Source: Gammaproteobacteria bacterium (GTDB lineage Bacteria; Pseudomonadota; Gammaproteobacteria; SZUA-229). Taken from it: 64,000 nt of DNA. The first letter of the stretch is position 1, and every line of letters starts with the position of its first letter. The stretch is from assembly GCA_029881035.1 (NCBI GenBank), contig JAOUNI010000002.1, positions 1-64,000 of the forward strand, in the 5' to 3' direction. The notes under the pieces were generated by a model. The model ran no database searches. It saw nothing but the letters and a program-made list of their open reading frames with translations, and was not told the origin of the DNA. Both the position numbers and the translations under genes were made by a program. Below are positions 19,977-59,827 of this stretch, in pieces.

Positions 19977-20119
19977 CGAAACATTCAAGCGTCATGACTG
20001 AAGATGAGACAAGGCATAAAGGTAGTACGAACGGAATTTACAACTCGCTAATAGCTTCACAGCACCGCATCGCGAATTCTGCTTTATAAAACCGTATCAT
20101 CAGAAAGATTAGCTTATAC

Positions 20120-20395
20120 ATGAAATCCTATATATACCGATGCAGCCGCAAGCCCGATATGTACATTTATCTGGCTGAGGAAGATGACTTCTCCAACGTG
20201 CCCAAAAATATCTTCAATAGTCTTGGCATTATTACATTTGCCATGGAGCTGGAGATCAGCCCTGATAAAAAACTCGCCCGAGAAGACCCCGTTAAAGTAA
20301 TAGGAAATTTAAAAGAACATGGTTTTCATCTTCAACTCCCTGATCAGACTCCGATTGAGGAATTGATGGCTCAAATCGCGGCTAAAAAAATCTAA
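20120..20395 (+). CDS. ycgL: YcgL domain-containing protein
   Basis: This is a 91-residue protein of the YcgL family, small cytoplasmic proteins of gammaproteobacteria with unknown function. The pattern YIYRCSRKPDMYIYLAEEDDFSNVP near the start is family-specific, as is the LxLxxDKKLAREDxxKVxxNLxEHGFxLQLP arrangement. It stands alone between hemL and the cold-shock-domain gene and is probably followed by the hairpin at 20408-20428. Confidence 0.9.
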   Translation: MKSYIYRCSRKPDMYIYLAEEDDFSNVPKNIFNSLGIITFAMELEISPDKKLAREDPVKVIGNLKEHGFHLQLPDQTPIEELMAQIAAKKI

Positions 20396-20407
20396 CTCCT
20401 CAATTCC

Positions 20408-20428
20408 ACACATAACTTGGCTATGTGT
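20408..20428 (+). terminator. Hairpin after ycgL
   Basis: ACACATA (20408-20414) pairs with TATGTGT (20422-20428), followed shortly by GAGTTTTCG. The 7-bp stem is AT-rich and the T-run is short, so this is a weak intrinsic terminator candidate. Confidence 0.4.
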
Positions 20429-20457
20429 CTGAGTTTTCGTCAGGTATACTCCTAATC

Positions 20458-20487
20458 GTTCAGTTCTACATCCTTATTAAACTGAAC
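20458..20487 (+). promoter_or_regulatory. Inverted repeat in the leader of the cold-shock-domain gene
   Basis: GTTCAGTT (20458-20465) and AACTGAAC (20480-20487) form a perfect 8-bp inverted repeat with a 14-base spacer. It ends 39 bases before the start codon. It could be a regulator site or a leader-RNA stem, since cold-shock genes often have structured leaders. Function is not shown by the sequence. Confidence 0.35.
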
Positions 20488-20526
20488 ATTTACAATTTTA
20501 TACAACCATCGTTTTAGAGGTATCAA

Positions 20527-20952
20527 ATGATTACAATAAATCAATTTATCAAAATAATTATTATCAGCACCATCACATCCGCCATCGCTACCGTTGTCAG
20601 CTTAAAAATACCTGGAAGCGAAGCCCATCTTGCAATCACTTCAACTCATTTGCCGCTATTTTTAATTTCCTTTATCAGCATTTTGGTCGCCTGCCTTATT
20701 ACCATCAAGCTGGCTGGCACCTCAAGAAAACCTGTCAAAGTCGGTTCTGGTCGTGAAACCGGCACAGTAAAATGGTTTAACGCTGCCAAAGGCTTTGGTT
20801 TTATTACCCGTGAAAATGGTGAGGATATATTTGTTCATTTCCGTTCAATTCAAGGTAAAGGACATCGCTCTCTAGGTGAAGGTCAGTCGGTTATTTTTGA
20901 AGTTGCCGAAAGCGATAAAGGCTTACAAGCTGTAGACGTATGCAGTGCTTGA
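20527..20952 (+). CDS. Membrane-anchored cold-shock-domain protein
   Basis: This is a 141-residue fusion. Residues 7-26 and about 43-63 form two hydrophobic helices. After a basic linker, residues 77-140 form a full cold-shock domain starting [15 protein letters not shown]. Both RNA-binding motifs are intact (KGFGFI and DIFVHF). Ordinary Csp proteins are about 70 residues and soluble. The anchored form would place the nucleic-acid-binding domain on the cytoplasmic face of the inner membrane. AGAGG lies 8 bases before the start, and a strong terminator follows the gene. Confidence 0.88.
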
Positions 20953-20971
20953 TAAGTTAAATTTCACTCAT

Positions 20972-21000
20972 AAAAAAAGCTCCTTAAGGAGCTTTTTTTA
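20972..21000. terminator. Bidirectional intrinsic terminator
   Basis: AAAAAAAGCTCC-TTAA-GGAGCTTTTTTT is a near-perfect stem flanked by an A-run and a T-run. It ends the cold-shock-domain gene and can also stop transcription arriving from tcdA on the other strand. Confidence 0.9.
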
Positions 21001-21033
21001 TGGTCTTGATTAATACCAGAAATAAACATACTG

Positions 21034-21828
21034 TTATTTTTTCCTAATGACTTTATTTTTTATGGCTATCCGTTCAATCGCTGCCGCCGCCGCAGTAAAA
21101 CCAAATATAGCGGTAACAGCAACACTGGAACCATAACCAAAATTACAATCCAGTGACAAACCTGAAACACCGGGCTTTGCGTAACCTACATTTCCATCCT
21201 TACCTGGATAACGTTGCTGCTCTGTTGAATACACACAGGGCACACCAAAGGTATATCTTTTATCCCGAGTAAATCCGTGCCAGTAGCGCAATTCTGAACG
21301 CACTTTGGCGGCCAGTGGATCATTCCAGGTGCTGGATAAATCAGATACCTGTATTTTTGTCGGATCGATCAGGCCGCCCGCACCACCGGTGGTGATAATC
21401 GGTATTTTATTTCGCTTGCAGCAGTAAATCATTTTGGTTTTAGATTTGAAGCCGTCGATGGCATCGATCACACAGTCATAGCCGCGTTCCAGAATATCGC
21501 GAAAATTACTCTCATCAAGATATTGCTCGATGGTCTGCACCTCGCATTCGGGATTAATATCCAGCAGACGCTTTTTCATGGTATCAACCTTCGACTGGCC
21601 GATGGTCGATTCCAGGGTGTGAATCTGCCGGTTGGCATTGCTGCGTGAAATGATATCGCCATCAACCAGGGTGATCCTGCCGACCCCTGTTCTGACCAGT
21701 GCTTCCGCCGCCCACGAGCCCACGCCGCCAATACCGACCACACAAATATGCGCACTGGCCAGCATCTTCATCATCTCGACACCATAAACACGCGACAGGG
21801 AACTAAATTTCTCTTCGTAATGACTCAT
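21034..21828 (-). CDS. tcdA: tRNA threonylcarbamoyladenosine dehydratase
   Basis: This E1-like enzyme adenylates t6A37 in tRNA and cyclises it to ct6A. The nucleotide loop ICVVGIGGVGSWAAEALVRTGVG, then LVDGDIISRSNANRQIH and VIDAIDGFKSK, are typical. CKRNKIPIITTGGAGGLIDPT and the C-terminal FGYGSSVAVTAIFGF complete the TcdA/CsdL pattern. The start at 21828 (MSHYEEKFSSLSRVYG) gives 264 residues, close to the family length. A longer start at 21882 adds 18 unconserved residues and cannot be excluded. It is divergent from rimO. The csdA-csdE sulfur-transfer genes are not nearby. Confidence 0.92.
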   Translation of the reverse strand: MSHYEEKFSSLSRVYGVEMMKMLASAHICVVGIGGVGSWAAEALVRTGVGRITLVDGDIISRSNANRQIHTLESTIGQSKVDTMKKRLLDINPECEVQTIEQYLDESNFRDILERGYDCVIDAIDGFKSKTKMIYCCKRNKIPIITTGGAGGLIDPTKIQVSDLSSTWNDPLAAKVRSELRYWHGFTRDKRYTFGVPCVYSTEQQRYPGKDGNVGYAKPGVSGLSLDCNFGYGSSVAVTAIFGFTAAAAAIERIAIKNKVIRKK

Positions 21829-21917
21829 TAAAAAAGTTTCAGGTTGTTCGTTAGCAGTGACCAATAAAAAGCTTTCAGCCATCTACTGCCGGCTGATATC
21901 TAAGGTAAAATCGCCCC

Positions 21918-23261
21918 ATGACATCTACATCAAAAAATACGACGCCTCAGCGCGCCAAAAAAGTTGGCTTCGTTAGCCTCGGCTGCCCCAAGGCGACCGT
22001 CGATTCGGAGCATATTCTCACACAGTTGCGCGCCGAAGGTTACGACATTGTACCCACTTATGACGATGCGGACATTGTCGTGGTCAACACCTGTGGTTTT
22101 ATCGATGCCGCCGTTGAGGAATCACTCGATGCCATCGGCGAAGCACTGGCTGAAAATGGCAAGGTTATCGTCACCGGCTGCCTCGGTGCCAAAGGCGATG
22201 TCGTCAAACAGGCCCATCCCCAGGTTCTGGCCGTGACCGGCCCACATGCCACCGCCGAAGTGATGGATGCGATCCACCAGCATCTGCCGCCGCTGCATGA
22301 CCCGTTTGTCGACCTGGTGCCACCGCAGGGCGTCAGGCTCACGCCCCGGCATTATGCCTATTTAAAAATTTCCGAAGGCTGTAATCATCGCTGCACCTTC
22401 TGCATCATTCCCGCCCTGCGCGGCGACCTGGTCAGCCGCCCGGTCAATGACGTACTGGCCGAAGCCAAACGCCTGCAAGAAGCCGGCGTGCAGGAGCTGC
22501 TGGTGATATCGCAGGACACCAGCGCCTACGGCATCGACGTTAAATACAAAACCGAATTCTGGGAAGGCATGCCGGTGAAAACCCGCATGACCGAACTCTG
22601 CGAAGCACTGGGCACACTCGGCCTCTGGGTACGTTTACATTACGTTTACCCCTACCCGCACGTCGATGAAATTATTCCGCTGATGAATGCAGGCAAGGTA
22701 CTACCGTATCTGGACATCCCCTTCCAGCACGCCAACCCGCGTATTTTAAAAGCCATGAAGCGCCCGGCTTCCAGCGAAAAAGTTTTAGGCCGCATCAAAA
22801 AGTGGCGCGAACAATGCCCCGAACTGACCCTGCGCAGCACCTTCATCGTCGGCTTCCCCGGTGAAACTGAAGAGGAGTTTCAGGAACTACTCGATTTTCT
22901 CGACGAAGCCCAGCTCGACCGCGTCGGCTGTTTCACCTACTCCCCGGTCGAAGGCGCGGTAGCCAACGAACTCGGCGAAGCCATTCCGGAAGAAGTCAAA
23001 GAAGAACGCCTGGCCCGCTTCATGGAAAAACAGATAGGCATCAGCGCCGAACGCCTGAAAAGAAATATTGGTAAAGAAATAGAAGTACTGGTGGATGAAG
23101 TCAGTGAAGACGGCGCCATCGCCAGAAGCATGGCCGACGCCCCGGATATCGATGGCCTGGTATATATTCTCGAACCCGAAGATCTACAACCAGGTGATCG
23201 GGTGATGGTACGCATCGAGCAGACCGATGAACATGATATGTGGGGAATACTGGTCGATTAA
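21918..23261 (+). CDS. rimO: Ribosomal protein uS12 methylthiotransferase
   Basis: This radical-SAM enzyme adds a methylthio group to an aspartate of ribosomal protein S12. The 447-residue product starts with the N-terminal iron-sulfur domain ([30 protein letters not shown]). The radical-SAM CX3CX2C motif follows (CNHRCTFC), with RGDLVSRP next to it. A C-terminal TRAM domain covers about the last 70 residues. All cluster-binding cysteines are present. GC content is clearly higher than in the following fic gene. Confidence 0.96.
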
Positions 23262-23349
23262 AAACTTTTCACCGCAGAGCCGCAGAGGATACACTTCAAT
23301 TCCTAACTTACGTCCGATTACACTGCGCTAATCACACCTACGAGCTGGC

Positions 23350-23378
23350 TTGTGTCGAACCATTCGACATGTTATAAG
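23350..23378 (+). promoter_or_regulatory. Candidate sigma-70 promoter of the fic fusion gene
   Basis: TTGTGT (23350-23355) and TATAAG (23373-23378) are separated by 17 bases. The -10 matches the consensus at five of six positions and the -35 is weak. The repeat array at 23353-23409 covers both elements, so a protein bound there should repress. Confidence 0.45.
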
Positions 23379-23409
23379 AATATGTCGAATATGTTACAAA
23401 TCTTCGACA
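23353..23409. repeat. Array of four TGTCGAA/TTCGACA half-sites (operator-like)
   Basis: Perfect 7-base half-sites occur at 23353-23359 (TGTCGAA), 23363-23369 (TTCGACA), 23383-23389 (TGTCGAA) and 23403-23409 (TTCGACA). Their orientation alternates and their spacing is 10, 20 and 20 bases, so all lie on one face of the helix. The array ends 51 bases before the fic start codon. The most direct reading is an operator for two dimers, perhaps bound by the winged-helix part of the Fic protein itself. Confidence 0.7.
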
Positions 23410-23460
23410 TATAACAACGGATTGATTTGGTAAGCAAAATGATCACAAAGCACAAGCCTC

Positions 23461-25422
23461 ATGTTTGATAGAAACAAACCTTACAATGATTTACCTCTCT
23501 TGCCACCCAACCGGGAGCTGGAAACCAAAGAAGTGCTGAAAAAAGCCATATCTGCCAATGCTCGTCTTGCAGAGCTCAAAGGCATAGCGAATAGAATCCC
23601 AAATCAAACTATACTGATTAACTTCCTGACTCTTCAGGAAGCACGAAGCAGTTCAGAAATAGAAAATATTGTTACAACTAATGACAAGCTTTTTGAAGCC
23701 TTTTCTCTTAACAACACAAAGGGAGACCCGGAAACAAAAGAGGTATTGCGCTATAAAGAAGCAATGTGGGAAGGTTATCAGGCTCTGAAAAATAAGCACT
23801 TTTTAACTACCAATCTATTTGTAAACGTCTGCAATACCATTAAAAAGAACCAGTCAGGTGTCCGCAAAACAACGGGGACAAAGATAGGAAATCAAACTAC
23901 AAAAGAAATCATATATACCCCACCTGAAGGTGAAAGCGTCATATTAAAAAAGCTAAAAAACCTTGAAGATTACATTCATGATGATAGCGATTTAACAGAC
24001 CCTTTAATTAAGATGGCTGTTATTCACTACCAATTTGAAGCGATACATCCATTCTCTGACGGCAATGGAAGAACAGGACGAATTCTTAATATTCTTTATC
24101 TCATTTTGAAAGATATGCTCGATCTTCCGATCCTGTATCTCAGTCAATATATCATCGCCAATAAGGATAAATACTATAAACATCTGAGTCAGGTTACTGA
24201 GGAAAATGAATGGCAGGGCTGGATAATGTATATGCTTGATGGCATTGAGCAAACAGCTACCTCTACAAGAAATAAGATAATAGAGATTAATGATCTTTTT
24301 GAATACACCCTGGATTATGCAAAACAAAAGCTACCTAACTACATGTATTCAAAAGAGCTGATTGAACTCATTTTTGAACAGCCTTATTGCAAAGTTAAGT
24401 TTCTTGTTGATAAAGATATTGCCCAACGCCAGCAGGCATCAAAATACCTGTATCAACTTGAAAGCATAGGTATTTTGCAGAAAAAAAAGGTGGGCAAGGA
24501 GCAGCTTTTTTTAAATACCAAACTATTTGAGTTATTAAGCAACTTAACACCACACCCTAATAACTTGCAAAGCTCTAAAAGTGAAGGTGATCTTTTTGAA
24601 ACCCTTGATAGCAATCTCGAAACATGGGAAGAAATGTTCCTCAAGCTCAAAGATTTTATTGAAAAACATGGGCATTCTTATGTGTCAAAAAGAGATCAAA
24701 AAACAAGGCAGCTCGGTCACTGGGTAACTGACCAGAGGAAGAAAAAGAAAAGCAACTTACTTTCAAGGGAGCAAATCACCAAGCTTGAAGAAATAGACAT
24801 GGACTGGGACCCTATAAATAACAGATGGGAAAACAACTACAAGGAACTCGTTAAATTTAAAAAGGCTAATGGTCATTGTGATGTTCCTCAGAGATATGCA
24901 GAAAATCAGGAATTCTCTAATTGGGTGTTTAACCAGAGATATAGATATAAAATAAAAAAGCTGTCTAACATAAGAACAAAGAAGCTTGAAAAGATAGGTT
25001 TCAACTGGGGTAGAGATGCTAATGTTTCGGATGATCGAATTAAAGAATTGCTTGAATATAAGAAAAAATTTGGGCATCTTAATGTTTCACAAGTAGATCC
25101 CAATGAAGAATGGCGCGGATTAGGCAAGTGGCTTAACAATCAGAGGCATGCCAAGAAAAAAGGAACACTTAGTACCGAGCTTGAAGAAAAACTTAATGAA
25201 ATAGGTGTCGCATGGAATGCGTTAGAAGCAAATTGGGATAAGAAACTAGGCGAGTTAAAAGACTTTCATGAAATTCATGGGCATTTCAGGGTGCCCCAAA
25301 ATGGGGAGATCAGCAAACTCGGTTATTGGATTGCAAAAATCAGAAGAGTTAAACCCGATGCTGAAAGATTGAAAAAGCTGTCTGACATAGGCTTTGATTG
25401 GGATAAGGAAAAAGTAAAGTAG
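23461..25422 (+). CDS. Fic-domain AMP-transferase fused to a winged helix and four helicase-associated (HA) repeats
   Basis: This is a 653-residue protein. Residues 1-100 form a Fic_N region with the inhibitory-helix motif (S/T)xxxE(G/N), here S64 to E68-N69 in SSSEIEN. Residues about 115-270 form the Fic core with the complete active-site motif HPFSDGNGRTGR (H196 to R207), so AMP or another nucleotide moiety could be transferred to target proteins. Residues about 290-362 look like the winged helix common behind Fic domains. Residues about 389-450, 456-517, 524-585 and 592-648 are four HA repeats. Each has the pattern of an aromatic/acidic helix, (H/N)GH or FGH, VP or VS, a W before xxxxR, then IGFxW or similar. 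HA repeats are normally attached to helicases and are thought to bind nucleic acid. The gene is AT-rich compared with rimO and nhaD, which suggests acquisition. There is no adjacent antitoxin, and the inhibitory motif is internal. Confidence 0.88.
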   Translation: MFDRNKPYNDLPLLPPNRELETKEVLKKAISANARLAELKGIANRIPNQTILINFLTLQEARSSSEIENIVTTNDKLFEAFSLNNTKGDPETKEVLRYKEAMWEGYQALKNKHFLTTNLFVNVCNTIKKNQSGVRKTTGTKIGNQTTKEIIYTPPEGESVILKKLKNLEDYIHDDSDLTDPLIKMAVIHYQFEAIHPFSDGNGRTGRILNILYLILKDMLDLPILYLSQYIIANKDKYYKHLSQVTEENEWQGWIMYMLDGIEQTATSTRNKIIEINDLFEYTLDYAKQKLPNYMYSKELIELIFEQPYCKVKFLVDKDIAQRQQASKYLYQLESIGILQKKKVGKEQLFLNTKLFELLSNLTPHPNNLQSSKSEGDLFETLDSNLETWEEMFLKLKDFIEKHGHSYVSKRDQKTRQLGHWVTDQRKKKKSNLLSREQITKLEEIDMDWDPINNRWENNYKELVKFKKANGHCDVPQRYAENQEFSNWVFNQRYRYKIKKLSNIRTKKLEKIGFNWGRDANVSDDRIKELLEYKKKFGHLNVSQVDPNEEWRGLGKWLNNQRHAKKKGTLSTELEEKLNEIGVAWNALEANWDKKLGELKDFHEIHGHFRVPQNGEISKLGYWIAKIRRVKPDAERLKKLSDIGFDWDKEKVK

Positions 25423-25495
25423 CTCGTAGGTCTCAACACATTGCGCATTATGAAATGCTTTTTTTCTTCCGCTTTACCCACCCCCTCACATCTTG

Positions 25496-25602
25496 CCGAG
25501 CCATGTGACTTTGGTAGTGCAAATCAGGCAGGACGCCTGATTTAGTTTCGCGAGCGGGATTGCGAGTCGAAACGGGCGCGTAGGCAAAGTTGCATGGCTC
25601 GG
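25496..25602. repeat. Long-range inverted repeat enclosing a hairpin
   Basis: CCGAGCCATG (25496-25505) and CATGGCTCGG (25593-25602) are perfect inverted copies 87 bases apart. They enclose the stem AAATCAGGC (25521-25529) / GCCTGATTT (25535-25543) and a second stem GTTTCG (25545-25550) / CGAAAC (25568-25573). The arrangement could fold as a multi-branched RNA or DNA structure. Confidence 0.6.
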
Positions 25603-25640
25603 GAACCCGTTAGGGCAAGGTGTTATGGGCGGCATTTTTA

Positions 25641-25775
25641 CAAAACACGTCCTGTGTTTTGCCCTACGGGACAGCTATAAAACAGCTGTTCAAATTCGCT
25701 CCCGGCGAATTTGTCTGGTTACTCTTTTGCTGCTGTTGGCAAAAGAGTGACTCGCCCGTGGGTGCGAATACCCAC
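25641..25775. repeat. Tandem short hairpins
   Basis: Four perfect stems lie in a row: CAAAACAC/GTGTTTTG (25641-25661), CAAATTCGC/GCGAATTTG (25691-25713), ACTCTTTTGC/GCAAAAGAGT (25721-25748) and GTGGGT/ACCCAC (25758-25775). A shorter palindrome, AACAGCTGTT, lies at 25681-25690. Loops are 5-8 bases. The stems differ in sequence, so this is a string of unlike hairpins, not a simple repeat. Confidence 0.65.
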
Positions 25776-25835
25776 TACCACCAAGATTACAGATTAATAC
25801 GAAGATTTTGTAATTACACAAAAGCCCAGACATGG

Positions 25836-25855
25836 ATACCGGCCTACGCCGGTAT
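25836..25855. repeat. Dispersed palindromic repeat (REP-like unit)
   Basis: ATACCGGC (25836-25843) and GCCGGTAT (25848-25855) form an 8-bp stem with a 4-base loop, preceded by CATGG and followed by GACGA. This is the form of a palindromic intergenic repeat common in proteobacteria whose translation reads WIP-YAGMT. Confidence 0.6.
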
Positions 25856-25865
25856 GACGAACATA

Positions 25866-25899
25866 AAAAAAGCAGGGCGGATTACCCGCCCTGCTTTTT
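25866..25899. terminator. Bidirectional intrinsic terminator
   Basis: GCAGGGCGG (25872-25880) pairs with CCGCCCTGC (25886-25894) around a 5-base loop. An A-run before and a T-run after extend the stem. It serves nhaD on the minus strand and any transcript from the fic side. Confidence 0.9.
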
Positions 25900-25924
25900 C
25901 AATGAAACACTGATGAGTTATTTA

Positions 25925-27364
25925 TTAAGTAAAATAACTTTCATTCCACCACATATGCACTGCAATACTCGCTGCATAACCCAGTGCAATGACCGGCGTC
26001 CATTTAAGATGGCCGAAGAAAGTGTATTTACCCTGTGCCTGACCCATCAGCGCCACGCCCGCGGCTGAACCGATCGACAATAGAGAGCCACCAACACCGG
26101 CGGTCATGGTCACCAGCAGCCACTGTCCGGTCGACATGTGCGGCTCCATAGTCAGTACGGCAAACATCACCGGTATATTATCGACAATCGCTGAAAGCAA
26201 ACCGACAGCGATATTCGCATTGGTCGCACCCCATGATGTGTACATGATTTCAGACACCAACGACAGATAACCGAGGAAACCCAGACCACCGACGCACAAT
26301 ACAACGCCATAGAAGAAGAACAGCGTATCCCACTCGGCGCGGGCAATTTTGCTGAACACATCAAAGGCAACCACATCACCGATTTGTGCTTCTTCCTCTG
26401 GATTGCTACAACGCTGTGCGATACAACGGGAGTGCGTTCTTTTCAGGAAGTAACCAAAAAACTGCAAATAACCCAGACCTGTCAGCATGCCGATAACCGG
26501 TGGCAGGCCAAGGAAGTTGTGGAAACTAACCGCAGTCACGATGGTGAGCAGGAACAGTGCAATGATGCGTTTCGCGCCACGATAGGTGAAGGCTACTTCA
26601 TCGGCACCTGATGGCTGCTCATTCGGCACTGCAAAATGCATGATTGCAGCAGGTATCACAAAGTTAACCACCGAAGGAATGAATAAGGCAAAGAAGGTGA
26701 CAAAATCAACCATACCTTTCTGCCATACCATCAGCGTCGTAATATCACCGAAAGGTGAAAAGGCACCGCCAGCATTGGCACCAACAACGATGTTGATACA
26801 GGCCAGCGTGACAAATTTGGTATTGGTGCCACCCACGGCCAGTACTACGGCACACATCAACAATGCAGTAGTCAGGTTGTCGGCAACGGGTGAAATAAAG
26901 AATGCCAGTATGCCGGTCAGCCAGAATAATTTTCGGAAACCGAAACCTTTGCTAATCAACCAGGAGCGCAGAGCATCAAATACCCGGCGTTCTTCCATGG
27001 CGTTGATATAAGTCATCGCCACCAGCAGGAACAACATCAGCTCGGCGTATTCCAGCAGGTTGTGGCGCACCGCCATTTCTGCCATATGCGACATACCATG
27101 CTGCATGTAAACCCAGCCAATGGTACCCCAGATCAAACCGGCCGCAATGATGACCGGCTTGGATTTACGCAGATGCAGAAATTCTTCACCAATCACCAGT
27201 GCATAAGCAAAAACAAAAATAACGATGGCGAAAAAACCGACACCGCTATTGGTTAAATCAAGACGTGTCGCTTCGGTTGCGACTGCACCAGTGCTGGCCA
27301 TAGCCAGCCCGGGTAACATCACGGCAGCCAGAGCTAACCACGTTTTATTGAAGAGATTAAACAT
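25925..27364 (-). CDS. nhaD: Sodium:proton antiporter NhaD
   Basis: NhaD antiporters exchange cytoplasmic Na+ or Li+ for external H+ and are frequent in marine and haloalkaliphilic bacteria. The 479-residue product starts with a signal-like helix ending AMAS and has about 12 further hydrophobic segments. Family blocks include SPVADNLTTALLMCAVV, ANAGGAFSPFGDITTLMVWQKG and the C-terminal GGSLLSIGSAAGVALMGQ. Charged residues D and N within membrane segments are conserved candidates for ion binding. It follows the SLC13-type permease gene by 23 bases on the same strand, so the two are probably co-transcribed. Confidence 0.94.
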   Translation of the reverse strand: MFNLFNKTWLALAAVMLPGLAMASTGAVATEATRLDLTNSGVGFFAIVIFVFAYALVIGEEFLHLRKSKPVIIAAGLIWGTIGWVYMQHGMSHMAEMAVRHNLLEYAELMLFLLVAMTYINAMEERRVFDALRSWLISKGFGFRKLFWLTGILAFFISPVADNLTTALLMCAVVLAVGGTNTKFVTLACINIVVGANAGGAFSPFGDITTLMVWQKGMVDFVTFFALFIPSVVNFVIPAAIMHFAVPNEQPSGADEVAFTYRGAKRIIALFLLTIVTAVSFHNFLGLPPVIGMLTGLGYLQFFGYFLKRTHSRCIAQRCSNPEEEAQIGDVVAFDVFSKIARAEWDTLFFFYGVVLCVGGLGFLGYLSLVSEIMYTSWGATNANIAVGLLSAIVDNIPVMFAVLTMEPHMSTGQWLLVTMTAGVGGSLLSIGSAAGVALMGQAQGKYTFFGHLKWTPVIALGYAASIAVHMWWNESYFT

Positions 27365-27387
27365 AAACCAGTTCCTGGAAATTTAAA

Positions 27388-29361
27388 TCAGAAAATTAAA
27401 TTCATCATTAGCATCATAACAGTCAAAAACAACACCGTCATAATACCACCTGCTTTCATAAAGTCCGGTACGCGATAGCCGCCGGGGCCCATGATTAGCG
27501 CATTCACCTGATGCGTTGGGATGAGGAATGAGTTCGAAGTCGCAATTGCCACAGTCAAAGCAAAAACGGCCGGGTTCGCATCGACACCATTCGCCTGCAG
27601 ACTAATGGCGATATTCACCGCCAGTGGCACCAGCAAGACGGTAGCGCCGACATTCGACATCACCAGGGTAAAGAAGGTCGCCAATACAGCGATGGATAAC
27701 TGGATCACCCAGACGTCCATATCGCCCACGACTGACAATGTCTGCTCGGCAATCCAGCGAGCCGTACCCGAGGTTTCTACCGCCAGACCCAGCGGGATCA
27801 AACTCGCCAGCAGGAAAACGGTTTTCCACGAAACGGCTTTATAAGCTTCATCAATATTTAGTACGCCTGACAATACCATGCCGATAGCACCGGTCAGCAG
27901 GGCGACAGATAAGCGCAAATCACTAAATAGCACCATTGATAGCGCAATCACAAAGAAAAAGCCTGCCCAACCGACCTTGTGAGGACGAACTTCCTCATGC
28001 GGATATTCGGTGGTGACAACGACAAAGTTGGGGTCAGTTTCCAAACGCGCCAGAGCCGCCCAACTGGTGTGAACCACCAGCGTATCACCGGCTTCTAAAG
28101 GCAGATTTCTAATATCATCTCCTTCTACCAGCGTTTCGCCATCACGATGCAACGCCACCATGGCAATACCGTAAGTTTTACGCATCCATAAATCACGCGC
28201 ACTCTTACCAATCAAAGCAGAACCGGGGGGGATTACGATATCAGCAATACCTGATTTAGCGGATGACAGAGAATCAGCAAAAGTTTCCAGTTCGGTGCGC
28301 AATTCAAGTTTGTACTTTTCAGCAAAGGCCAGCAGGTTATTTGGTGACGCGAACACACCCAGCACGCTGCCATCTGTAATACCTGTATCACGGTCCAGAC
28401 CACCAGCGCCTACACGCAGGTCATCACCGCCACTACGAATCGCAACGACACGAATACGCTCGTCGTGTTCGATATCATTTAAATTAATGCCCACTAAACT
28501 ACTCTCTTTAGGCACGGCTAATTCGAACAGATCATAATCGATACCGTAAATTTTCTTGAAGTAATTCAGTGTATCGCCACCTTTTGTACCTTTCTCTGCG
28601 TCCGTTTTCGGCAGCACGTAACGCCCCATCAGCACAAAATAAATGATTCCGGCGGTTACCAGTGCCAGGCCAACGGGGGTCACCGAGAACAGCCCCCAGG
28701 TTTCCATCTGCTGTTCAGCTGGCAAAGCATGGTTCGAAGTCAGGATAAGATCATTGAGCAAAATTAATGGCGAGGATCCGACCATGGTCACGGTACCACC
28801 CAGAATGGCACAGAAACCCATCGGCATTAACAGGCGCGACATGGGCAGACCGGAGCGCGCTGAAATACGACTCACCACTGGCAGGAATAAGGCGGCGGCA
28901 CCGACGTTCTGCATGAACGAGGAAATAAAACCGACGGTGCCCGAAATAATTGGGATGATACGAGTTTCAGTTTTACCACCTATTTTAAGGATAAAGGCCG
29001 CTACCGTGGTCATCAGGCCCGTTTTATCCAGACCGGCACCAATAATCATCACCGCTATGATCGACATTACCGCGTTACTGGAAAAGCCGTTGAAGATCTT
29101 CTGGGTATCGACCAGCCCCTGTTCCAGCCCCATAACCGGGGCCAGCAAGGTAGTCAGGCCGAGTAACACCATAATACTGACCGCAGCCACATCAACGCCC
29201 ACGACTTCAAAGGCAAATAAATAAATAGTCAGCATTAATAGCGAGGCCACCCAGGCTATCTCGATGGTCGGGGTATATGAAGTCAGCCAGAGTGCACCCA
29301 GCGCAAAAACAACAGCTGCGATGATTTTTTTCATCGGTAATGATTTTTTTTCTTCAGTCAT
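27388..29361 (-). CDS. SLC13/DASS-type permease with two RCK_C (TrkA-C) domains
   Basis: This is a 657-residue membrane protein. Two hydrophobic halves of about five or six helices each flank a cytoplasmic region at about residues 270-450. That region holds two TrkA-C/RCK_C modules (around YDLFELAVPKESSLVGINL and IADIVIPPGSALIGKSARDL), each ending in a GD-x-L strand. The membrane parts contain the divalent-anion:Na+ symporter patterns MQNVGAAALFLPVVSRIS and MSNVGATVLLVPLAVNIA. Members move dicarboxylates, sulfate or similar anions with Na+, and the substrate is not determined. It is the first gene before nhaD and is divergent from a LysR regulator at 29504. Confidence 0.9.
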   Translation of the reverse strand: MTEEKKSLPMKKIIAAVVFALGALWLTSYTPTIEIAWVASLLMLTIYLFAFEVVGVDVAAVSIMVLLGLTTLLAPVMGLEQGLVDTQKIFNGFSSNAVMSIIAVMIIGAGLDKTGLMTTVAAFILKIGGKTETRIIPIISGTVGFISSFMQNVGAAALFLPVVSRISARSGLPMSRLLMPMGFCAILGGTVTMVGSSPLILLNDLILTSNHALPAEQQMETWGLFSVTPVGLALVTAGIIYFVLMGRYVLPKTDAEKGTKGGDTLNYFKKIYGIDYDLFELAVPKESSLVGINLNDIEHDERIRVVAIRSGGDDLRVGAGGLDRDTGITDGSVLGVFASPNNLLAFAEKYKLELRTELETFADSLSSAKSGIADIVIPPGSALIGKSARDLWMRKTYGIAMVALHRDGETLVEGDDIRNLPLEAGDTLVVHTSWAALARLETDPNFVVVTTEYPHEEVRPHKVGWAGFFFVIALSMVLFSDLRLSVALLTGAIGMVLSGVLNIDEAYKAVSWKTVFLLASLIPLGLAVETSGTARWIAEQTLSVVGDMDVWVIQLSIAVLATFFTLVMSNVGATVLLVPLAVNIAISLQANGVDANPAVFALTVAIATSNSFLIPTHQVNALIMGPGGYRVPDFMKAGGIMTVLFLTVMMLMMNLIF

Positions 29362-29503
29362 AATTGTTGAATATGGTTATTGAGAGGGAATTAGGATTTT
29401 TAGAGGCGCGAATTCTAGTCAACTAGACCTAAACTGAAAAGCGAAATAAAATACCCGCTATGAACAAAAATTTAGCACAGCAAGTACAGGCAAACTAATC
29501 AGC

Positions 29504-30337
29504 ATGGATATCGAGCACCTCAAAACGTTTCTCGAAGTCGAGCGTATGCGCAATTTTCGCAAGGCCGCGGAAAATCTGTGTATTTCCCCGTCTGCGATTA
29601 GCGCGCGCATCCGCCAGCTTGAACAAACCATCGGCCTGGTTCTATTCCGGCGTGACCGACAGACAGTCAGCCTGACTCAGGCCGGTGAACGTTTTGAGCG
29701 CCATGCGCGTTTTATCCTGAGCGCATGGGAACATGCACACCAGGAAATTGCACTCAGCAAACAAATCGATAAGCATCTGGTGGTAGCCGGCGTCAACAGT
29801 TTGTGGGAAATCCTTCTGCAGGGCTGGCTCAATGACATTCACTGTCATTCGCCATTAATTGGTCTCCGAGCCGAATCCAGCACATCCAAACGCATCGCGC
29901 AGAAACTGGAACAGGGTGCCATTGACCTTGGTTTTATCTATGAACCTCCCCAGCTCAGGGAAATGGTGGTACAGGAAGTGGGCAATGTCGCCCTGATCAT
30001 GGTCAGCAGTGAACCAGACCAGAAAGCTGATGATGCACTGACTGATGGCTATGTTCGCGTCGACTGGGGCACACTGTTTACCAGCCTGCACGAAAATTAT
30101 TTCCCTCAGCGCCCGATCGCCGCGGTCCGTGCCAATGTCGGTAGTATTGCCCTTGGCCTGATTGAAAGTTGTGGTGGTGCCGCCTATTTACCCACTTCGA
30201 TGGTCAGGCACAAACTGGATCAGGGTAAACTCTTCAGGGTTAACGACGCCCCCGAAATTCCTCTAAAAGCTTATGCGGTCTTCTCTATGCATGGCGAACA
30301 TCGCCGTTTGATTGAGCAGCTACTACAAACACTGTAG
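29504..30337 (+). CDS. LysR family transcriptional regulator (HdfR-like)
   Basis: This is a 277-residue DNA-binding regulator. The N-terminal helix-turn-helix reads MDIEHLKTFLEVERMRNFRKAAENLCISPSAIS in short segments typical of LysR proteins, followed by the linker helix RIRQLEQTIGLVLFRR. An effector-binding domain covers about 90-277. The N-terminus is closest in pattern to HdfR. It is transcribed divergently from the SLC13-nhaD pair with 142 bases between, the usual arrangement of a LysR protein and its targets. Regulation of those transporters is inferred. Confidence 0.9.
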   Translation: MDIEHLKTFLEVERMRNFRKAAENLCISPSAISARIRQLEQTIGLVLFRRDRQTVSLTQAGERFERHARFILSAWEHAHQEIALSKQIDKHLVVAGVNSLWEILLQGWLNDIHCHSPLIGLRAESSTSKRIAQKLEQGAIDLGFIYEPPQLREMVVQEVGNVALIMVSSEPDQKADDALTDGYVRVDWGTLFTSLHENYFPQRPIAAVRANVGSIALGLIESCGGAAYLPTSMVRHKLDQGKLFRVNDAPEIPLKAYAVFSMHGEHRRLIEQLLQTL

Positions 30338-53478: not shown

Positions 53479-54960
53479 TCAAGCAGTAGGCCGCGTCGTC
53501 ATTTGAAAAGAAAAGGTAGTGCCTCGGTTCAGTTCGCTGTGGACTTTGATGACGCTGCCGTGCAGCTCAATGATACGTTGTACAATGGCCAGACCCAGAC
53601 CGGCGTTGTTGCTGCCGGAGCGGTGCGCATCCTTCTGATAGAACCGTTCAAAAATTCTGGGCACATCTTCAGCCGGAATACCGCAACCAGTGTCGGCAAT
53701 TTGCACCACCACATTACCGGAGTCAACATCAACGCTCACGCTAATACGTCCACCCTCTGGTGTGTGGCGCAGGCCATTTTCCAGCAGATTTTCCAGCACG
53801 CGCTGCATCATCGCGATGTCACCGTAAATTAACGGCGCCTCGGGATTCAGATTTACATCCAGCTGGATTGTCTTCTGCTGGGCGCGTAACTGGAATGCCT
53901 GGGTGACGTCCTGCACCAGCTCGCCCATAGAAAATGGCTCCGAAAAAACCACCGCTTCACAGGAATCCAGTTTGGCCAATTCAAATAACTCTTCCACCAA
54001 CTTGCCCAAATGCTGGCTGTGACTCAATGCTGTTTCCAGATATTGTTTCTGTTCTTCCGCAGACAGCTCGCCACTCTTTAACAGCAGCGTTTCCAGATAA
54101 CCGCGCATGGTCGTCAGCGGGGTGCGCAAATCATGGGAGACATTGGCCACCATTTCGCGGCGCATGCCATCCATGCGTTTGAGCTCCAGTATCTGGCTAT
54201 TAATCTTTTCCGCCATGGCATTAAATTGCTGGCCTAATTCATCAATCTCATCATTGCTTTTGCCTTCACTCGGAAAACGTAACGACAGATCTCCGTCCCG
54301 GCTTTTACCTGTATAACTGTGAATGATGCTGCCTAACAAACGCAGGCGACGGGTCTGCAAGGCAAACACAATTAAACCGCCGAGTAAGGCGGCAGCCAGC
54401 GCAACCAGTAACACCTTTAATGCCGAATCAAAGATGAAGCTATTGCCGAGCATCTGCACTACGTCATCGTACTGTTCGCTTCCCAGCACGATATAAAGAT
54501 AACCCTGCAAACCATTTTCGTTGGTGATCTCTGCAACTGAAAATACTTTCTGACCATCGAGGTCACGTGGGTCGTCACCTTTAAGCGGGAATCTGGCATC
54601 GCTATGCAGAAAAGCCATTATGGGTTCGAGATCAACCTGGGTGCGTTTCACTTTTCCCTCGGGAGCAGAGTAGTCCAGCACCCCACCCTGTTTATCCAGA
54701 AGATATAACTCGATGCTGGGATTGATCACCATCAAATTATGAAACAGCCCTTCCAGCACCTGATCATTGATCTTCTGGTTCTGCATTAACGGCTGATCGG
54801 CAACAATATGTTGCGCCAGTGCAGTGTTCAGTTTTTGTGATACTTCCTGCTGATAGAGCGTACTGGAATGGCCGATTAATTGAATCAGGATTAACCCCAC
54901 CAGACTTAACAGCACAAACAAGGTCAGCGCCAGACGACTGTACAGCGTGCGGAACATCAT
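53479..54960 (-). CDS. Sensor histidine kinase (HAMP-HisKA-HATPase)
   Basis: This is a 493-residue membrane sensor kinase. The first transmembrane helix is at about 10-30. A periplasmic sensor of about 145 residues follows, then the second helix at about 180-200. A HAMP linker covers about 202-255, and the HisKA box NVSHDLRTPLTTMRGYLE has the phospho-acceptor H276. The ATPase part has VLENLLENGLRHTPEGG, ADTGCGIP and GSNNAGLGLAIV. It overlaps its response regulator gene by 4 bases. The ligand is unknown, but the divergent spondin genes are obvious candidate targets. Confidence 0.94.
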   Translation of the reverse strand: MMFRTLYSRLALTLFVLLSLVGLILIQLIGHSSTLYQQEVSQKLNTALAQHIVADQPLMQNQKINDQVLEGLFHNLMVINPSIELYLLDKQGGVLDYSAPEGKVKRTQVDLEPIMAFLHSDARFPLKGDDPRDLDGQKVFSVAEITNENGLQGYLYIVLGSEQYDDVVQMLGNSFIFDSALKVLLVALAAALLGGLIVFALQTRRLRLLGSIIHSYTGKSRDGDLSLRFPSEGKSNDEIDELGQQFNAMAEKINSQILELKRMDGMRREMVANVSHDLRTPLTTMRGYLETLLLKSGELSAEEQKQYLETALSHSQHLGKLVEELFELAKLDSCEAVVFSEPFSMGELVQDVTQAFQLRAQQKTIQLDVNLNPEAPLIYGDIAMMQRVLENLLENGLRHTPEGGRISVSVDVDSGNVVVQIADTGCGIPAEDVPRIFERFYQKDAHRSGSNNAGLGLAIVQRIIELHGSVIKVHSELNRGTTFSFQMTTRPTA

Positions 54961-55676
54961 GCTGATTTCTCCGCCAGGTCAGATGAGAATTTGTAACCAA
55001 CACCCCAGACGGTCATTACATATTTAGGTTTTGCCGGATCGGTTTCAATTTTTGCGCGCAGACGATTGATATGTGAATTCACCGTATGCTCATAACCATC
55101 ATGACCATACCCCCAAATGCTGCTAAGCAACTGTGACCGGCTATAAACCCGGCCCGGGTTGCTGGCAAAATGCCATAACAGGTCAAACTCCTTGGCCGTG
55201 AGTTCAATGCTGTTATCGTTGAGCAGTACCTGGCGTTTATCTGGGTCTATATACAGGTCACCACACTGCAGCGACTCCGATTTTTCTGCTGCCGGCGACG
55301 ACTGATATTCACCCGACCTGCGCAAGATCGAATTGACCCGTGCAATCAGCTCGGGAACACTGAAAGGCTTGGTCAGATAATCATCGGCACCCACTTCCAG
55401 ACCCAGTACCCGATCCAGCTCCGAAGTTTTTGCCGTCAGCATCAAGATCGGGGTGTTCACTTTTTCCTTACGCATCGTCCTGCAGACATCCATGCCATCC
55501 ATGCCCGGCAACATCAAATCGAGTATCACCAACTGATAACGCCCCGTCAGTGCCAGACGCAGACCGGTGTTGCCATCGGCGGCATGTTCCACCTGCATAT
55601 GCTTGCCGCGCAGGTTGATCATGATCAGATTGGCAATGTCGCGATTGTCTTCAATAATCAGTATGTTTTTTGGCAT
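54957..55676 (-). CDS. OmpR/PhoB family response regulator
   Basis: This is a 239-residue regulator from ATG 55676 (MPKNILIIEDNRDIA). The receiver has acidic pair E9-D10, phospho-acceptor D53 in VILDLMLPGMDG, and the lysine in LTKPFS. The C-terminal winged helix covers about 140-235 (SIELTAKEFDLLWHFASNPGRVYSRSQLLSSIWG). Starts further upstream are rejected because they add no conserved residues. It is the first gene of the pair with the kinase and is divergent from two spondin-domain genes. Confidence 0.95.
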   Translation of the reverse strand: MPKNILIIEDNRDIANLIMINLRGKHMQVEHAADGNTGLRLALTGRYQLVILDLMLPGMDGMDVCRTMRKEKVNTPILMLTAKTSELDRVLGLEVGADDYLTKPFSVPELIARVNSILRRSGEYQSSPAAEKSESLQCGDLYIDPDKRQVLLNDNSIELTAKEFDLLWHFASNPGRVYSRSQLLSSIWGYGHDGYEHTVNSHINRLRAKIETDPAKPKYVMTVWGVGYKFSSDLAEKSA

Positions 55677-55739
55677 GATGTCATCAGTGTTGTTTTCTGA
55701 AAATATATCTATTCGGTAATTTCTAGCCCTCAATTTCAG

Positions 55740-57388: not shown

Positions 57389-59827
57389 TCAGACCGAGCG
57401 CTCTGTTTTAGCTTTCTCCAGCCGTTCAGAAATTTCGGGATGCTGATGCGCGACATCCATCACATCCTTGCTGTTGATACGCAACAATGAACATGAACTG
57501 ATAGCACGAACATCCGCCTTGCGGACACTATCGCCCAATAGCGCCATCTCACCAAAAAAATCACCTGCACCGAGCTCACCCAGTTTGCTTTCCTGATCTT
57601 CATGTTTCAACAGAGCTTCAAGTCGGCCGCGGACAATCACATACAGCGCATCACCATGTTCACCTGTACCAATGATGGTATCACCTTCAAGATAATTAAC
57701 CGGTATTGCCCGCTGTGCAATTTTGTCCAGAGCGTCATCAGGTAATCCAGAAAACAAGGACACCAGACCGACCAATTCTCTTGGCGCCAAACTCTGTACG
57801 GGTTCAGCGATAGGCCTGATTGCATCAATAGCGTGATGCATGCGCTCCTCTAGATAAACATAAACTTTAGTCGTAAGACTGCCGCAATGATACGCTTCTT
57901 CAACGTCGTGCAATGCTGCAACCAGTGCAGACTTCGCGCATAAACGAGCCTCAAAACGCTCAAAGAACTCAGGGAAAGAGTTACGGGTATCAGAAATATG
58001 TTCCCGAAAATAGCTGAGCAGCTTCGCATAATTCGACTCTATCTTCTGCTGATGTTCAGCGCTCACGCTGGCATCTTCACGCAATTTTTTCAGCGCAGCC
58101 TCGGCCATGAGAATACGCGCAATATCACGCATCAGGTGACTCGACAGGCGACGATTCTGGTAATAAGACAGGAAGCCTGCGGCCCAGTCTTTTTCACGCA
58201 ACCATTTGACCAGTGCATCTTCAAAGCGCACAAAAATATTATCTTCACGCACTGATTTTTTTACTTCACCAACACGATGTTCGGTCACAATATGATCACG
58301 CTTACGCATTATCTCGCTACGTAAATCCAGATAAGAATATTGATTCAGCACACCTGCCTTGAATAGATCCTCCATTTCCTGCACTTCGGCGTTGAGCGCA
58401 TTCAAACGCTGATGGCGAAATTCATCATCACCAATCACTTCCGGCAGCCACTGGTTGATAATCTCATTGGTTTCATCCTTGACCGTGTGGTGACCCGCCT
58501 TACTCAGCAAGCCCGAATCACTAAACCGATTAAGAATATTATCCACTTCACCTTTCGCGCTAATAATGCCGCGCTTAAGCTCGGCCAGCTCATCCGCGCT
58601 GAGCTTATCGATGCCCAGCAACCGAATCAGCGGCCGGATGGTCGGCGCATTCACCAGCATGGTAAATAACACGACACCCAGGGTGAGATGGATTAATAAT
58701 TCACGCCCCGGTAAATCGACTGGCAGCGACAGCACAATCGCAATCGCCAGGCCGCCCTTGAGACCACCCCAGAACATAATATGCCGTTCACCGAGTGTGA
58801 CATGTGGCAACTTGAATACTTTTTCCAGCAAAGGCACCGAACTATAAACCAGCGCCGCACGACTCGCCTGCACCAGAATAACGGCGAGCAGGATGTACCA
58901 GATATCACCGATTAAACTGTCCAGATCAACCAGCATGCCGACAAACAGGAACAACAGGGTGTTGCAGATATGCGCGATAAATTCCCAGGTTTCGTGCATC
59001 AGCTCGACCGATTCTCGCGACAACCTCGGCATACCAAAAATGCCAAACACCACCGAACAGGCCACCACCGCCATGACACCGGAAACATGCAGATCATGCT
59101 CGGCCACAACAAACGAAACATACGCCAGCACCAGCGACAATATCAGCACCGCGCTCGATTCCTGGGCGAAGCGCGTCATCATCCAGCTGATCACCACACC
59201 AAATACCGCTCCCACCAACGCACCACCAAAAAACACAAACATAAACTGGCTCACCGCCGTACCCACCACGCCCCAGCCATTAGTGGGCGCCGCTGTATAC
59301 AATCCCAGTAAAATGGTGACCACCACAATCGCCGTCGCATCATTGAGCAAAGACTCACCTTCGACCATCACTGTCAGGCGCTCGGGTGTTCCCAGTTCCT
59401 TGAATAATGAAATGACCGCGACCGGGTCAGTGGCTGAAATCAGCGCACCGAATAATAAAGCCACCATCAAATCAATCGGCAATAACAGCCACAGGCCGAC
59501 GCCGACCAGCGCGGTTGATATCAATAAAGCAGGCACGGCCAGCGTCAGCACCGGCGCAATATCTTTGATTAATTGCCGCGCATTCAAGTTTAATCCTGAC
59601 TCAAAAATCAGGGCGGGTAGAAAAATAAACAACACCAGGTCGGGTGTTAAATGAAAATGCTGTAATGGTTCCAGCGGAGGCCATGCCTCGGACAACTGCG
59701 TCAGTACAATGCCGATGACAACAAGAATAACGGTGTAAGGAATGGGTAGTTTTCTAAACACCCCGGAAGCAACAATGCCAGTTGCCAGCAAAGCCATGAT
59801 AACAAGAACGGTTTCAGATAACGGCAT
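57389..59827 (-). CDS. CPA1-type Na+/H+ antiporter with C-terminal cyclic-nucleotide-binding domain
   Basis: This is an 812-residue protein. The first about 410 residues form a 12-helix CPA1 cation:proton antiporter with SATDPVAVIS (D134) and EGESLLNDATAIVV (N162-D163), the ion-binding positions. A long helical cytoplasmic region at about 410-680 follows. Residues about 685-800 form a cyclic-nucleotide-binding domain (GDTIIGTGEHGDALYVIVRG, GDFFGEMALLGDS). The order resembles eukaryotic SOS1 and sperm NHE. Cyclic-nucleotide control of transport is plausible but unproven. Confidence 0.92.
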   Translation of the reverse strand: MPLSETVLVIMALLATGIVASGVFRKLPIPYTVILVVIGIVLTQLSEAWPPLEPLQHFHLTPDLVLFIFLPALIFESGLNLNARQLIKDIAPVLTLAVPALLISTALVGVGLWLLLPIDLMVALLFGALISATDPVAVISLFKELGTPERLTVMVEGESLLNDATAIVVVTILLGLYTAAPTNGWGVVGTAVSQFMFVFFGGALVGAVFGVVISWMMTRFAQESSAVLILSLVLAYVSFVVAEHDLHVSGVMAVVACSVVFGIFGMPRLSRESVELMHETWEFIAHICNTLLFLFVGMLVDLDSLIGDIWYILLAVILVQASRAALVYSSVPLLEKVFKLPHVTLGERHIMFWGGLKGGLAIAIVLSLPVDLPGRELLIHLTLGVVLFTMLVNAPTIRPLIRLLGIDKLSADELAELKRGIISAKGEVDNILNRFSDSGLLSKAGHHTVKDETNEIINQWLPEVIGDDEFRHQRLNALNAEVQEMEDLFKAGVLNQYSYLDLRSEIMRKRDHIVTEHRVGEVKKSVREDNIFVRFEDALVKWLREKDWAAGFLSYYQNRRLSSHLMRDIARILMAEAALKKLREDASVSAEHQQKIESNYAKLLSYFREHISDTRNSFPEFFERFEARLCAKSALVAALHDVEEAYHCGSLTTKVYVYLEERMHHAIDAIRPIAEPVQSLAPRELVGLVSLFSGLPDDALDKIAQRAIPVNYLEGDTIIGTGEHGDALYVIVRGRLEALLKHEDQESKLGELGAGDFFGEMALLGDSVRKADVRAISSCSLLRINSKDVMDVAHQHPEISERLEKAKTERSV

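What the first reader, a model, noticed from the sequence alone, without database searches (positions are those of the whole stretch)
23461..25422. Fic-winged helix-HA repeat fusion: a possible nucleic-acid-guided AMPylator
One protein has a complete Fic active site (H196 to R207), an inhibitory-helix motif (S64 to E68-N69), a winged helix at about 290-362 and four C-terminal HA repeats (about 389-648). HA repeats are known from helicases as likely nucleic-acid binders. I do not recall this architecture being described. It suggests a Fic enzyme whose self-inhibition is released, or whose target is chosen, by DNA or RNA binding, as in a defence or toxin system. The gene is AT-rich and is flanked by repeats.
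Basis: partly seen in the sequence, partly recalled or inferred. Interest (0 to 1): 0.85.

Follow-up and report, generated by a model that had tools for sequence, protein, structure and literature searches.

The report
SoFic toxin fused to HA repeats
A bacterial protein-modifying toxin of the known SoFic anti-phage family carries four extra repeats probably used to hold DNA or RNA, a fusion I found in no other sequence searched, and its gene sits behind a strictly spaced array of DNA motifs that is shared with SoFic genes from many phyla and is probably read by the toxin itself.

Summary
Window 23461-25422 encodes an intact 653-aa protein: SoFic-type Fic AMPylase (motif H196-R207, inhibitory S64..E68-N69), the SoFic C-terminal winged helix, an acidic linker, and four HA repeats (Pfam HA, E=4e-63). 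The first 360 residues are an ordinary SoFic-type Fic; SoFic is a listed single-protein anti-phage system. The HA tail is the new part. No other Fic-HA fusion appeared among 80 closest genome relatives, 80 viral relatives, SoFic genes from 42 of 369 class genomes, or the plasmid and phage collections. HA elsewhere sits on restriction-like helicases and, in one genome, a methyltransferase, which supports but does not prove nucleic-acid binding. Nucleic-acid control of AMPylation remains inference.

The 'flanking repeats' led further. Upstream lie TGTCGA/TCGACA hexamers spaced 11, 19 and 21 bases apart. The same geometry precedes about half of 124 SoFic genes from many phyla (64/124; control upstreams 8/400; Markov null 1/372) and E. 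coli SoFic. Hexamer variants track the winged helix's recognition residue. SoFic is therefore probably an autoregulator through its winged helix, leaving the HA array for another ligand. Likely acquired by transfer; AT-rich throughout, in a variable rimO-nhaD site.

The parts
23353..23409 (+). Operator-like array: TGTCGA 23353, TCGACA 23364, TGTCGA 23383, TCGACA 23404 (spacings 11, 19, 21)
   Evidence: same positions relative to the start in an Armatimonadetes SoFic (L061); TGTCGA-N15-TCGACA occurs once in the 2.69-Mb genome, here
23461..25422 (+). SoFic-HA fusion gene, 653 aa
23461..24315 (+). SoFic-type AMPylase domain (residues 1-285; Fic_N plus Fic)
   Evidence: Pfam, PDB SoFic 5.7e-111, PADLOC SoFic 2.3e-116
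23650..23667 (+). Class II inhibitory motif S64-S-E-I-E68-N69
   Evidence: Sequence; S64 and E68 invariant in 49 aligned sequences
24046..24081 (+). Fic active-site motif HPFSDGNGRTGR (H196-R207)
   Evidence: Sequence; conserved in alignments
24295..24525 (+). SoFic C-terminal winged helix (residues 279-355); recognition helix 323-335 at 24427-24465
   Evidence: PF21248 5e-29; AlphaFold2 pLDDT over 95 and helix 323-335
24547..24624 (+). Acidic, poorly ordered linker (residues 363-388, pI 4.2)
   Evidence: pLDDT about 39-51; charge
24625..24822 (+). HA repeat 1 (residues 389-454)
   Evidence: HMM 87.4 bits; Pfam HA
24826..25020 (+). HA repeat 2 (residues 456-520)
   Evidence: HMM 87.3 bits
25036..25230 (+). 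HA repeat 3 (residues 526-590)
   Evidence: HMM 72.8 bits
25234..25410 (+). HA repeat 4 (residues 592-650)
   Evidence: HMM 67.2 bits

Best explanation
This is a horizontally acquired SoFic-family toxin, most likely a single-protein abortive-infection (anti-phage) AMPylase, extended at its C-terminus by an HA repeat array. Proposed working: (1) the protein is a dimer held in a self-inhibited state by E68; (2) its winged helix binds the phased TGTCGA array upstream of its own gene and keeps expression low; (3) the HA array, on a flexible acidic linker, binds some nucleic acid, by analogy with HA tails of restriction-like helicases; (4) that binding during phage infection either localises the enzyme or favours release of the inhibitory helix, so that it AMPylates an essential target and stops growth. 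The family assignment and intact catalytic and inhibitory motifs are shown; (1) is inferred from SoFic relatives; (2) is strongly supported by comparison; (3) is inferred from family and charge; (4) is inference.
For: Family: Pfam, NCBIfam, PADLOC and PDB matches, all active-site and inhibitory residues kept. Autoregulation: array with fixed spacings upstream of 64/124 SoFic genes against 8/400 control upstreams and 1/372 Markov null; recombinase near only 3 of 46 arrays, so it is not a res site; hexamer last base tracks recognition-helix residue 328: R in 9/9 TGTCGC/TGTCGT/TGTCAC genes, 1/46 TGTCGA genes; a held-out test, E. coli SoFic at two loci, shows the 19/51/70 spacings; the site TGTCGA-N15-TCGACA is unique in this genome; known precedents CccR and CbFic2. 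HA as nucleic-acid module: basic (pI 9.6, net +15); partners elsewhere are ResIII/DEAD helicases with restriction-enzyme similarity and an MT-A70 methyltransferase; 32% identity over all four repeats to a viral-contig helicase's HA array. Transfer: core closest to Ignavibacteriota, Nitrospirae and Desulfobacteraceae (61-63%), unlike SoFics of its own genus and family (43-48%) which sit in another clade; GC3 0.37 in both halves against 0.54-0.63 in neighbours; rimO-nhaD junction carries other genes in sister genomes.
Against: NCBIfam's SoFic equivalog cut-off is not reached (497.7 of 550 bits). The neighbourhood is housekeeping, not a defence island. No second fusion, so no conservation supports function of the HA tail. 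The HA model is only moderate (pLDDT 77, pTM 0.41) and matches nothing in the PDB by fold. No test of DNA or RNA binding by an HA repeat was found in the papers searched. The two closest SoFic cores (L055, L056) lack the array. The operator-residue covariation rests on few independent changes (1 to 3 pairs).
Confidence: 0.6

Rival explanations
1. The HA tail is a passive acquisition: a recent in-frame fusion with no role in control. The protein behaves as an ordinary SoFic and the tail is tolerated.
For: Singleton in every collection searched; the closest cores end at about 360 aa without it.
Against: The four repeats keep their conserved W, L and IGF.W positions with no frameshift, and composition equals the SoFic half, so the fusion probably predates arrival and has survived.
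Confidence: 0.25
2. The HA array improves DNA binding for repression only: it adds non-specific contacts beside the winged helix at the upstream array. It has no role in sensing or targeting.
For: The window array has four half-sites where some SoFics have up to 11; HA is basic.
Against: Many SoFics without HA have four-site arrays too (L061, L077).
Confidence: 0.2
3. The HA array is a protein-protein module that recruits a partner (for example a helicase or the AMPylation target) and binds no nucleic acid.
For: HA binding of DNA or RNA is presumed, not found tested in the papers searched; a stand-alone HA-repeat protein exists (Rufibacter).
Against: Known partners act on nucleic acid and the array is strongly basic.
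Confidence: 0.2
4. The fusion is an assembly error joining two genes of different organisms.
For: Draft genome in 99 contigs; the architecture is unique.
Against: One open frame with even composition; rimO upstream and nhaD downstream match sister genomes on both sides, so a chimera would need two exact joins and an in-frame junction.
Confidence: 0.03
5. The upstream hexamers are sites of another regulator or of a recombinase, not of SoFic itself.
For: Two plasmid SoFics are followed by a recombinase gene, and TGTC..GACA resembles resolvase sites (own knowledge).
Against: A recombinase lies near only 3 of 46 arrays; hexamers change with the SoFic recognition helix; the array accompanies SoFic across phyla and at two unrelated E. 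coli loci.
Confidence: 0.12

Closest known systems
SoFic / EcSofic (NF046030, PF21248; PDB 3eqx, 3zcn, 9tc4; PMC12249575)
   Same: Whole 1-360 region: Fic_N, class II inhibitory motif, Fic motif, C-terminal winged helix; about 50% identity to many SoFics, 63% at best
   Different: Four HA repeats added at the C-terminus; no AS1-like antitoxin identified; single gene outside a defence island
CccR of Yersinia pseudotuberculosis (PMC9755527)
   Same: Fic toxin with C-terminal HTH; there shown to repress its own promoter through inverted repeats as a dimer
   Different: Its operator is two 10-bp boxes 26 bp apart, not a multi-site array; it is a T6SS effector; no HA
CbFic2 of Coxiella burnetii (PMC10628234)
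   Same: Class II Fic with C-terminal HTH whose activity is controlled by DNA binding
   Different: Different N-terminal annotation (DUF4172), proposed to switch to deAMPylation on DNA; no HA
HA-repeat helicases (PF03457 with ResIII/DEAD)
   Same: Tandem HA array at the C-terminus, about 30% identity
   Different: Enzyme is a helicase, not a Fic AMPylase
HA plus MT-A70 methyltransferase (L404)
   Same: HA joined to a non-helicase enzyme of a family that modifies nucleic acid
   Different: One N-terminal HA repeat only

Membership tests
SoFic | Fic motif HPFxDGNGRxxR | tested here: met
   H196-R207
SoFic | N-terminal (class II) inhibitory motif (S/T)xxxE(G/N) | tested here: met
   S64-N69
SoFic | SoFic C-terminal winged helix PF21248 | tested here: met
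   100.8 bits, cut-off 27
SoFic | NCBIfam equivalog cut-off (NF046030, 550 bits) | tested here: not met
   497.7 bits, profile 1-357 of 361 matched; so SoFic-type, not a certified equivalog
SoFic | Dimer by N-terminal helix and AMPylation activity | not testable with these tools
   Only a monomer was modelled
SoFic | Protects against phage | not testable with these tools
   Needs plaque assay
HA repeat (PF03457) | Match above the gathering score | tested here: met
   209.9 bits, four stretches
HA repeat (PF03457) | Helicase domain in the same protein (usual architecture) | tested here: not met
   No helicase match
HA repeat (PF03457) | Nucleic-acid binding | not testable with these tools
   Inferred from charge and partners
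Fic autoregulator (CccR-like working) | Palindromic operator upstream of own gene | tested here: met
   Array 23353-23409, conserved geometry
Fic autoregulator (CccR-like working) | Protein binds that operator and represses | not testable with these tools
   Indirect: hexamer tracks recognition helix

The most novel reading that the evidence does not exclude
A nucleic-acid-gated AMPylator: the HA array senses phage (or other foreign) DNA or RNA and this contact, together with the winged helix leaving its operator array, unlocks the SoFic active site or sets its target. It would, as far as I know, be the first Fic toxin with separate domains for reading its own promoter and for sensing nucleic acid.
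Probability: 0.25. Interest if true: 0.85.

Novelty: new variant of a known kind. Interest (0 to 1): 0.62.

Why it matters
How SoFic is kept silent and what switches it on during infection is an open question in the field (PMC12249575). The fusion offers a natural experiment on the trigger. More generally useful is the phased TGTCGA array shared by SoFic genes across phyla and by E. coli SoFic: it predicts that SoFic represses itself through its winged helix, which may help explain why SoFic is hard to clone under other promoters, and it can be tested at once in laboratory E. coli. A 2023 paper states that DNA binding by SoFic had not been shown (PMC10628234).

Tried and rejected
Genome scan with the window protein alone found no relative; repeated with an 11-sequence alignment. 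L055's long match looked like a fusion but is a second, separate Fic gene. HA-only scans of viral contigs failed for lack of conserved stretches or found nothing; a codon pattern found one HA helicase. L384's HA row was misaligned in the first structure alignment and dropped. A three-hexamer pattern alone is not specific in viral contigs (2 of 120 hits lie at SoFic), so only arrays with several phased sites beside SoFic count. A survey of DNA-binding repeat proteins was checked for HA: its MOON family is unrelated and PF03457 and 'HA domain' are not mentioned in the main text. No tRNA in the window and no Rfam match in 20000-30000. A resolvase-site reading of the array was considered and rejected.

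Full report
What is there. Window 23461-25422 (+) is a single open frame of 653 codons. Pfam gives Fic_N (26-107), Fic (144-214), SoFic-like_C (279-355) and four HA repeats (4.4e-63). The first 360 residues align end to end with SoFic crystal structures (5.7e-111) and with PADLOC's SoFic model (2.3e-116). NCBIfam's SoFic equivalog scores 497.7 bits, under its cut-off of 550. The catalytic motif H196-R207 and inhibitory motif S64-N69 are complete, and the key positions are conserved over 49 aligned sequences. So the Fic part and winged helix are an ordinary SoFic; the HA tail is what is unusual. AlphaFold2 models the SoFic part with confidence mostly over 90, a disordered linker at 363-388, and all-helical HA repeats of moderate confidence; the HA model has no significant fold match in the PDB.

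How rare the fusion is. HA in the phylum (45 of 398 genomes; no SoFic in the 30 loci inspected) and in the class (5 of 369, this one included) is on other proteins. In the four other class genomes with HA these are three ResIII/DEAD helicases, one overlapping a DUF4917/SIR2-like candidate defence gene, and one MT-A70 methyltransferase. Metagenomes could not be searched.

Origin. The core's nearest relatives are in Nitrospirae, Desulfobacteraceae and Ignavibacteriota (61-63%), and a tree without the winged helix puts it with Ignavibacteriota at 83% SH-aLRT, while SoFics of its own genus and family lie in another clade. Third-position GC is 0.365 in the SoFic part and 0.377 in the HA part against 0.54-0.63 in neighbours, so the fusion most likely happened before arrival. 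It sits between rimO and an nhaD-like transporter gene; in sister genomes that gap holds a small ORF or a GGDEF gene (gene names from the sequence). Because both flanks match sister genomes, a chimeric assembly is unlikely.

The upstream repeats. The window has TGTCGA, TCGACA, TGTCGA, TCGACA at 23353, 23364, 23383 and 23404. An Armatimonadetes SoFic has them at the same distances from its start. Over 46 genes the spacings are mostly 11, 19, 21, 30, 40, 51 and 70, and the half-site reads AYATGTCGAT. Allowing any hexamer in this geometry, 64 of 124 SoFic upstreams have three or more sites, against 8 of 400 upstream regions of other genes in the same loci and 1 of 372 Markov sequences. The geometry was read from the same data, but E. 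coli SoFic, not used for it, shows TGTCGA at -168, -98 and -28 and TCGACA at -117 and -47 at two unrelated loci. Other SoFics use TGTCGC, TGTCGT or TGTCAC in the same geometry; all nine of these carry arginine at the position of window residue 328 in the recognition helix, against 1 of 46 TGTCGA genes (Fisher p about 2e-9). The tree allows only one to three independent changes, so this covariation is suggestive and not proof. A recombinase explanation fails (3 of 46). In this genome TGTCGA-N15-TCGACA occurs only here. CccR, a Fic protein with a C-terminal HTH, is known to repress itself through inverted repeats, and CbFic2 is regulated by DNA through its HTH. For SoFic, one paper says DNA binding has not been shown, and the Sofic paper sections read do not describe it.

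How it most likely works. Shown: SoFic-type sequence with intact active and inhibitory motifs; HA repeats; conserved array. Strongly supported: winged helix reads the array, giving autorepression. Inferred: HA binds nucleic acid (basic, pI 9.6; nucleic-acid-acting partners). Speculative: this binding gates or aims AMPylation during phage infection.

Verdict. A real, apparently undescribed variant of a known defence toxin family, of fair interest; the shared phased array of SoFic genes is the more general result and is directly testable.

Noticed in passing
Upstream of SoFic genes in L031, L032, L057, L059, L061, L063, L078, L094, L101, L103, L110, L117, L406 and L407, and window 23353-23409: Phased TGTCGA/TCGACA arrays (unit about 70 bases, up to 11 hexamers) shared by SoFic genes across phyla and by E. 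coli SoFic.
   Followed up: yes
L045, L053, L002, L003, L119, L124, L132, L069, L108: Other SoFic clades have different palindromes in the same place (TATAGAAA.., TTATACATGAGAA.., ATATGTTC..), suggesting clade-specific operators.
   Followed up: partly
L402:810-4825: HA-repeat ResIII helicase gene overlapping a DUF4917/SIR2-like (PDC-S21) gene: a possible two-gene defence system.
   Followed up: no
L404:1790-2704 (two copies in genome G314): One HA repeat fused to an MT-A70 methyltransferase.
   Followed up: no
L030:5359-7062: Stand-alone protein made almost only of HA repeats on a Rufibacter plasmid.
   Followed up: no
window 23262-25924 with L255 and L257: The rimO-nhaD junction is a variable site: fic-HA here, a small ORF or a GGDEF gene in sister genomes.
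   Followed up: partly
window 25834-25904: REP-like palindrome (a second copy on contig C70) followed by a strong hairpin after the gene.
   Followed up: partly
window 57389-59827 (-) and 54957-55733 (-): Large protein with a C-terminal TIR-like match, and a weak Shedu (SduA, DUF4263) match at the N-terminal part of a nearby small protein.
   Followed up: no
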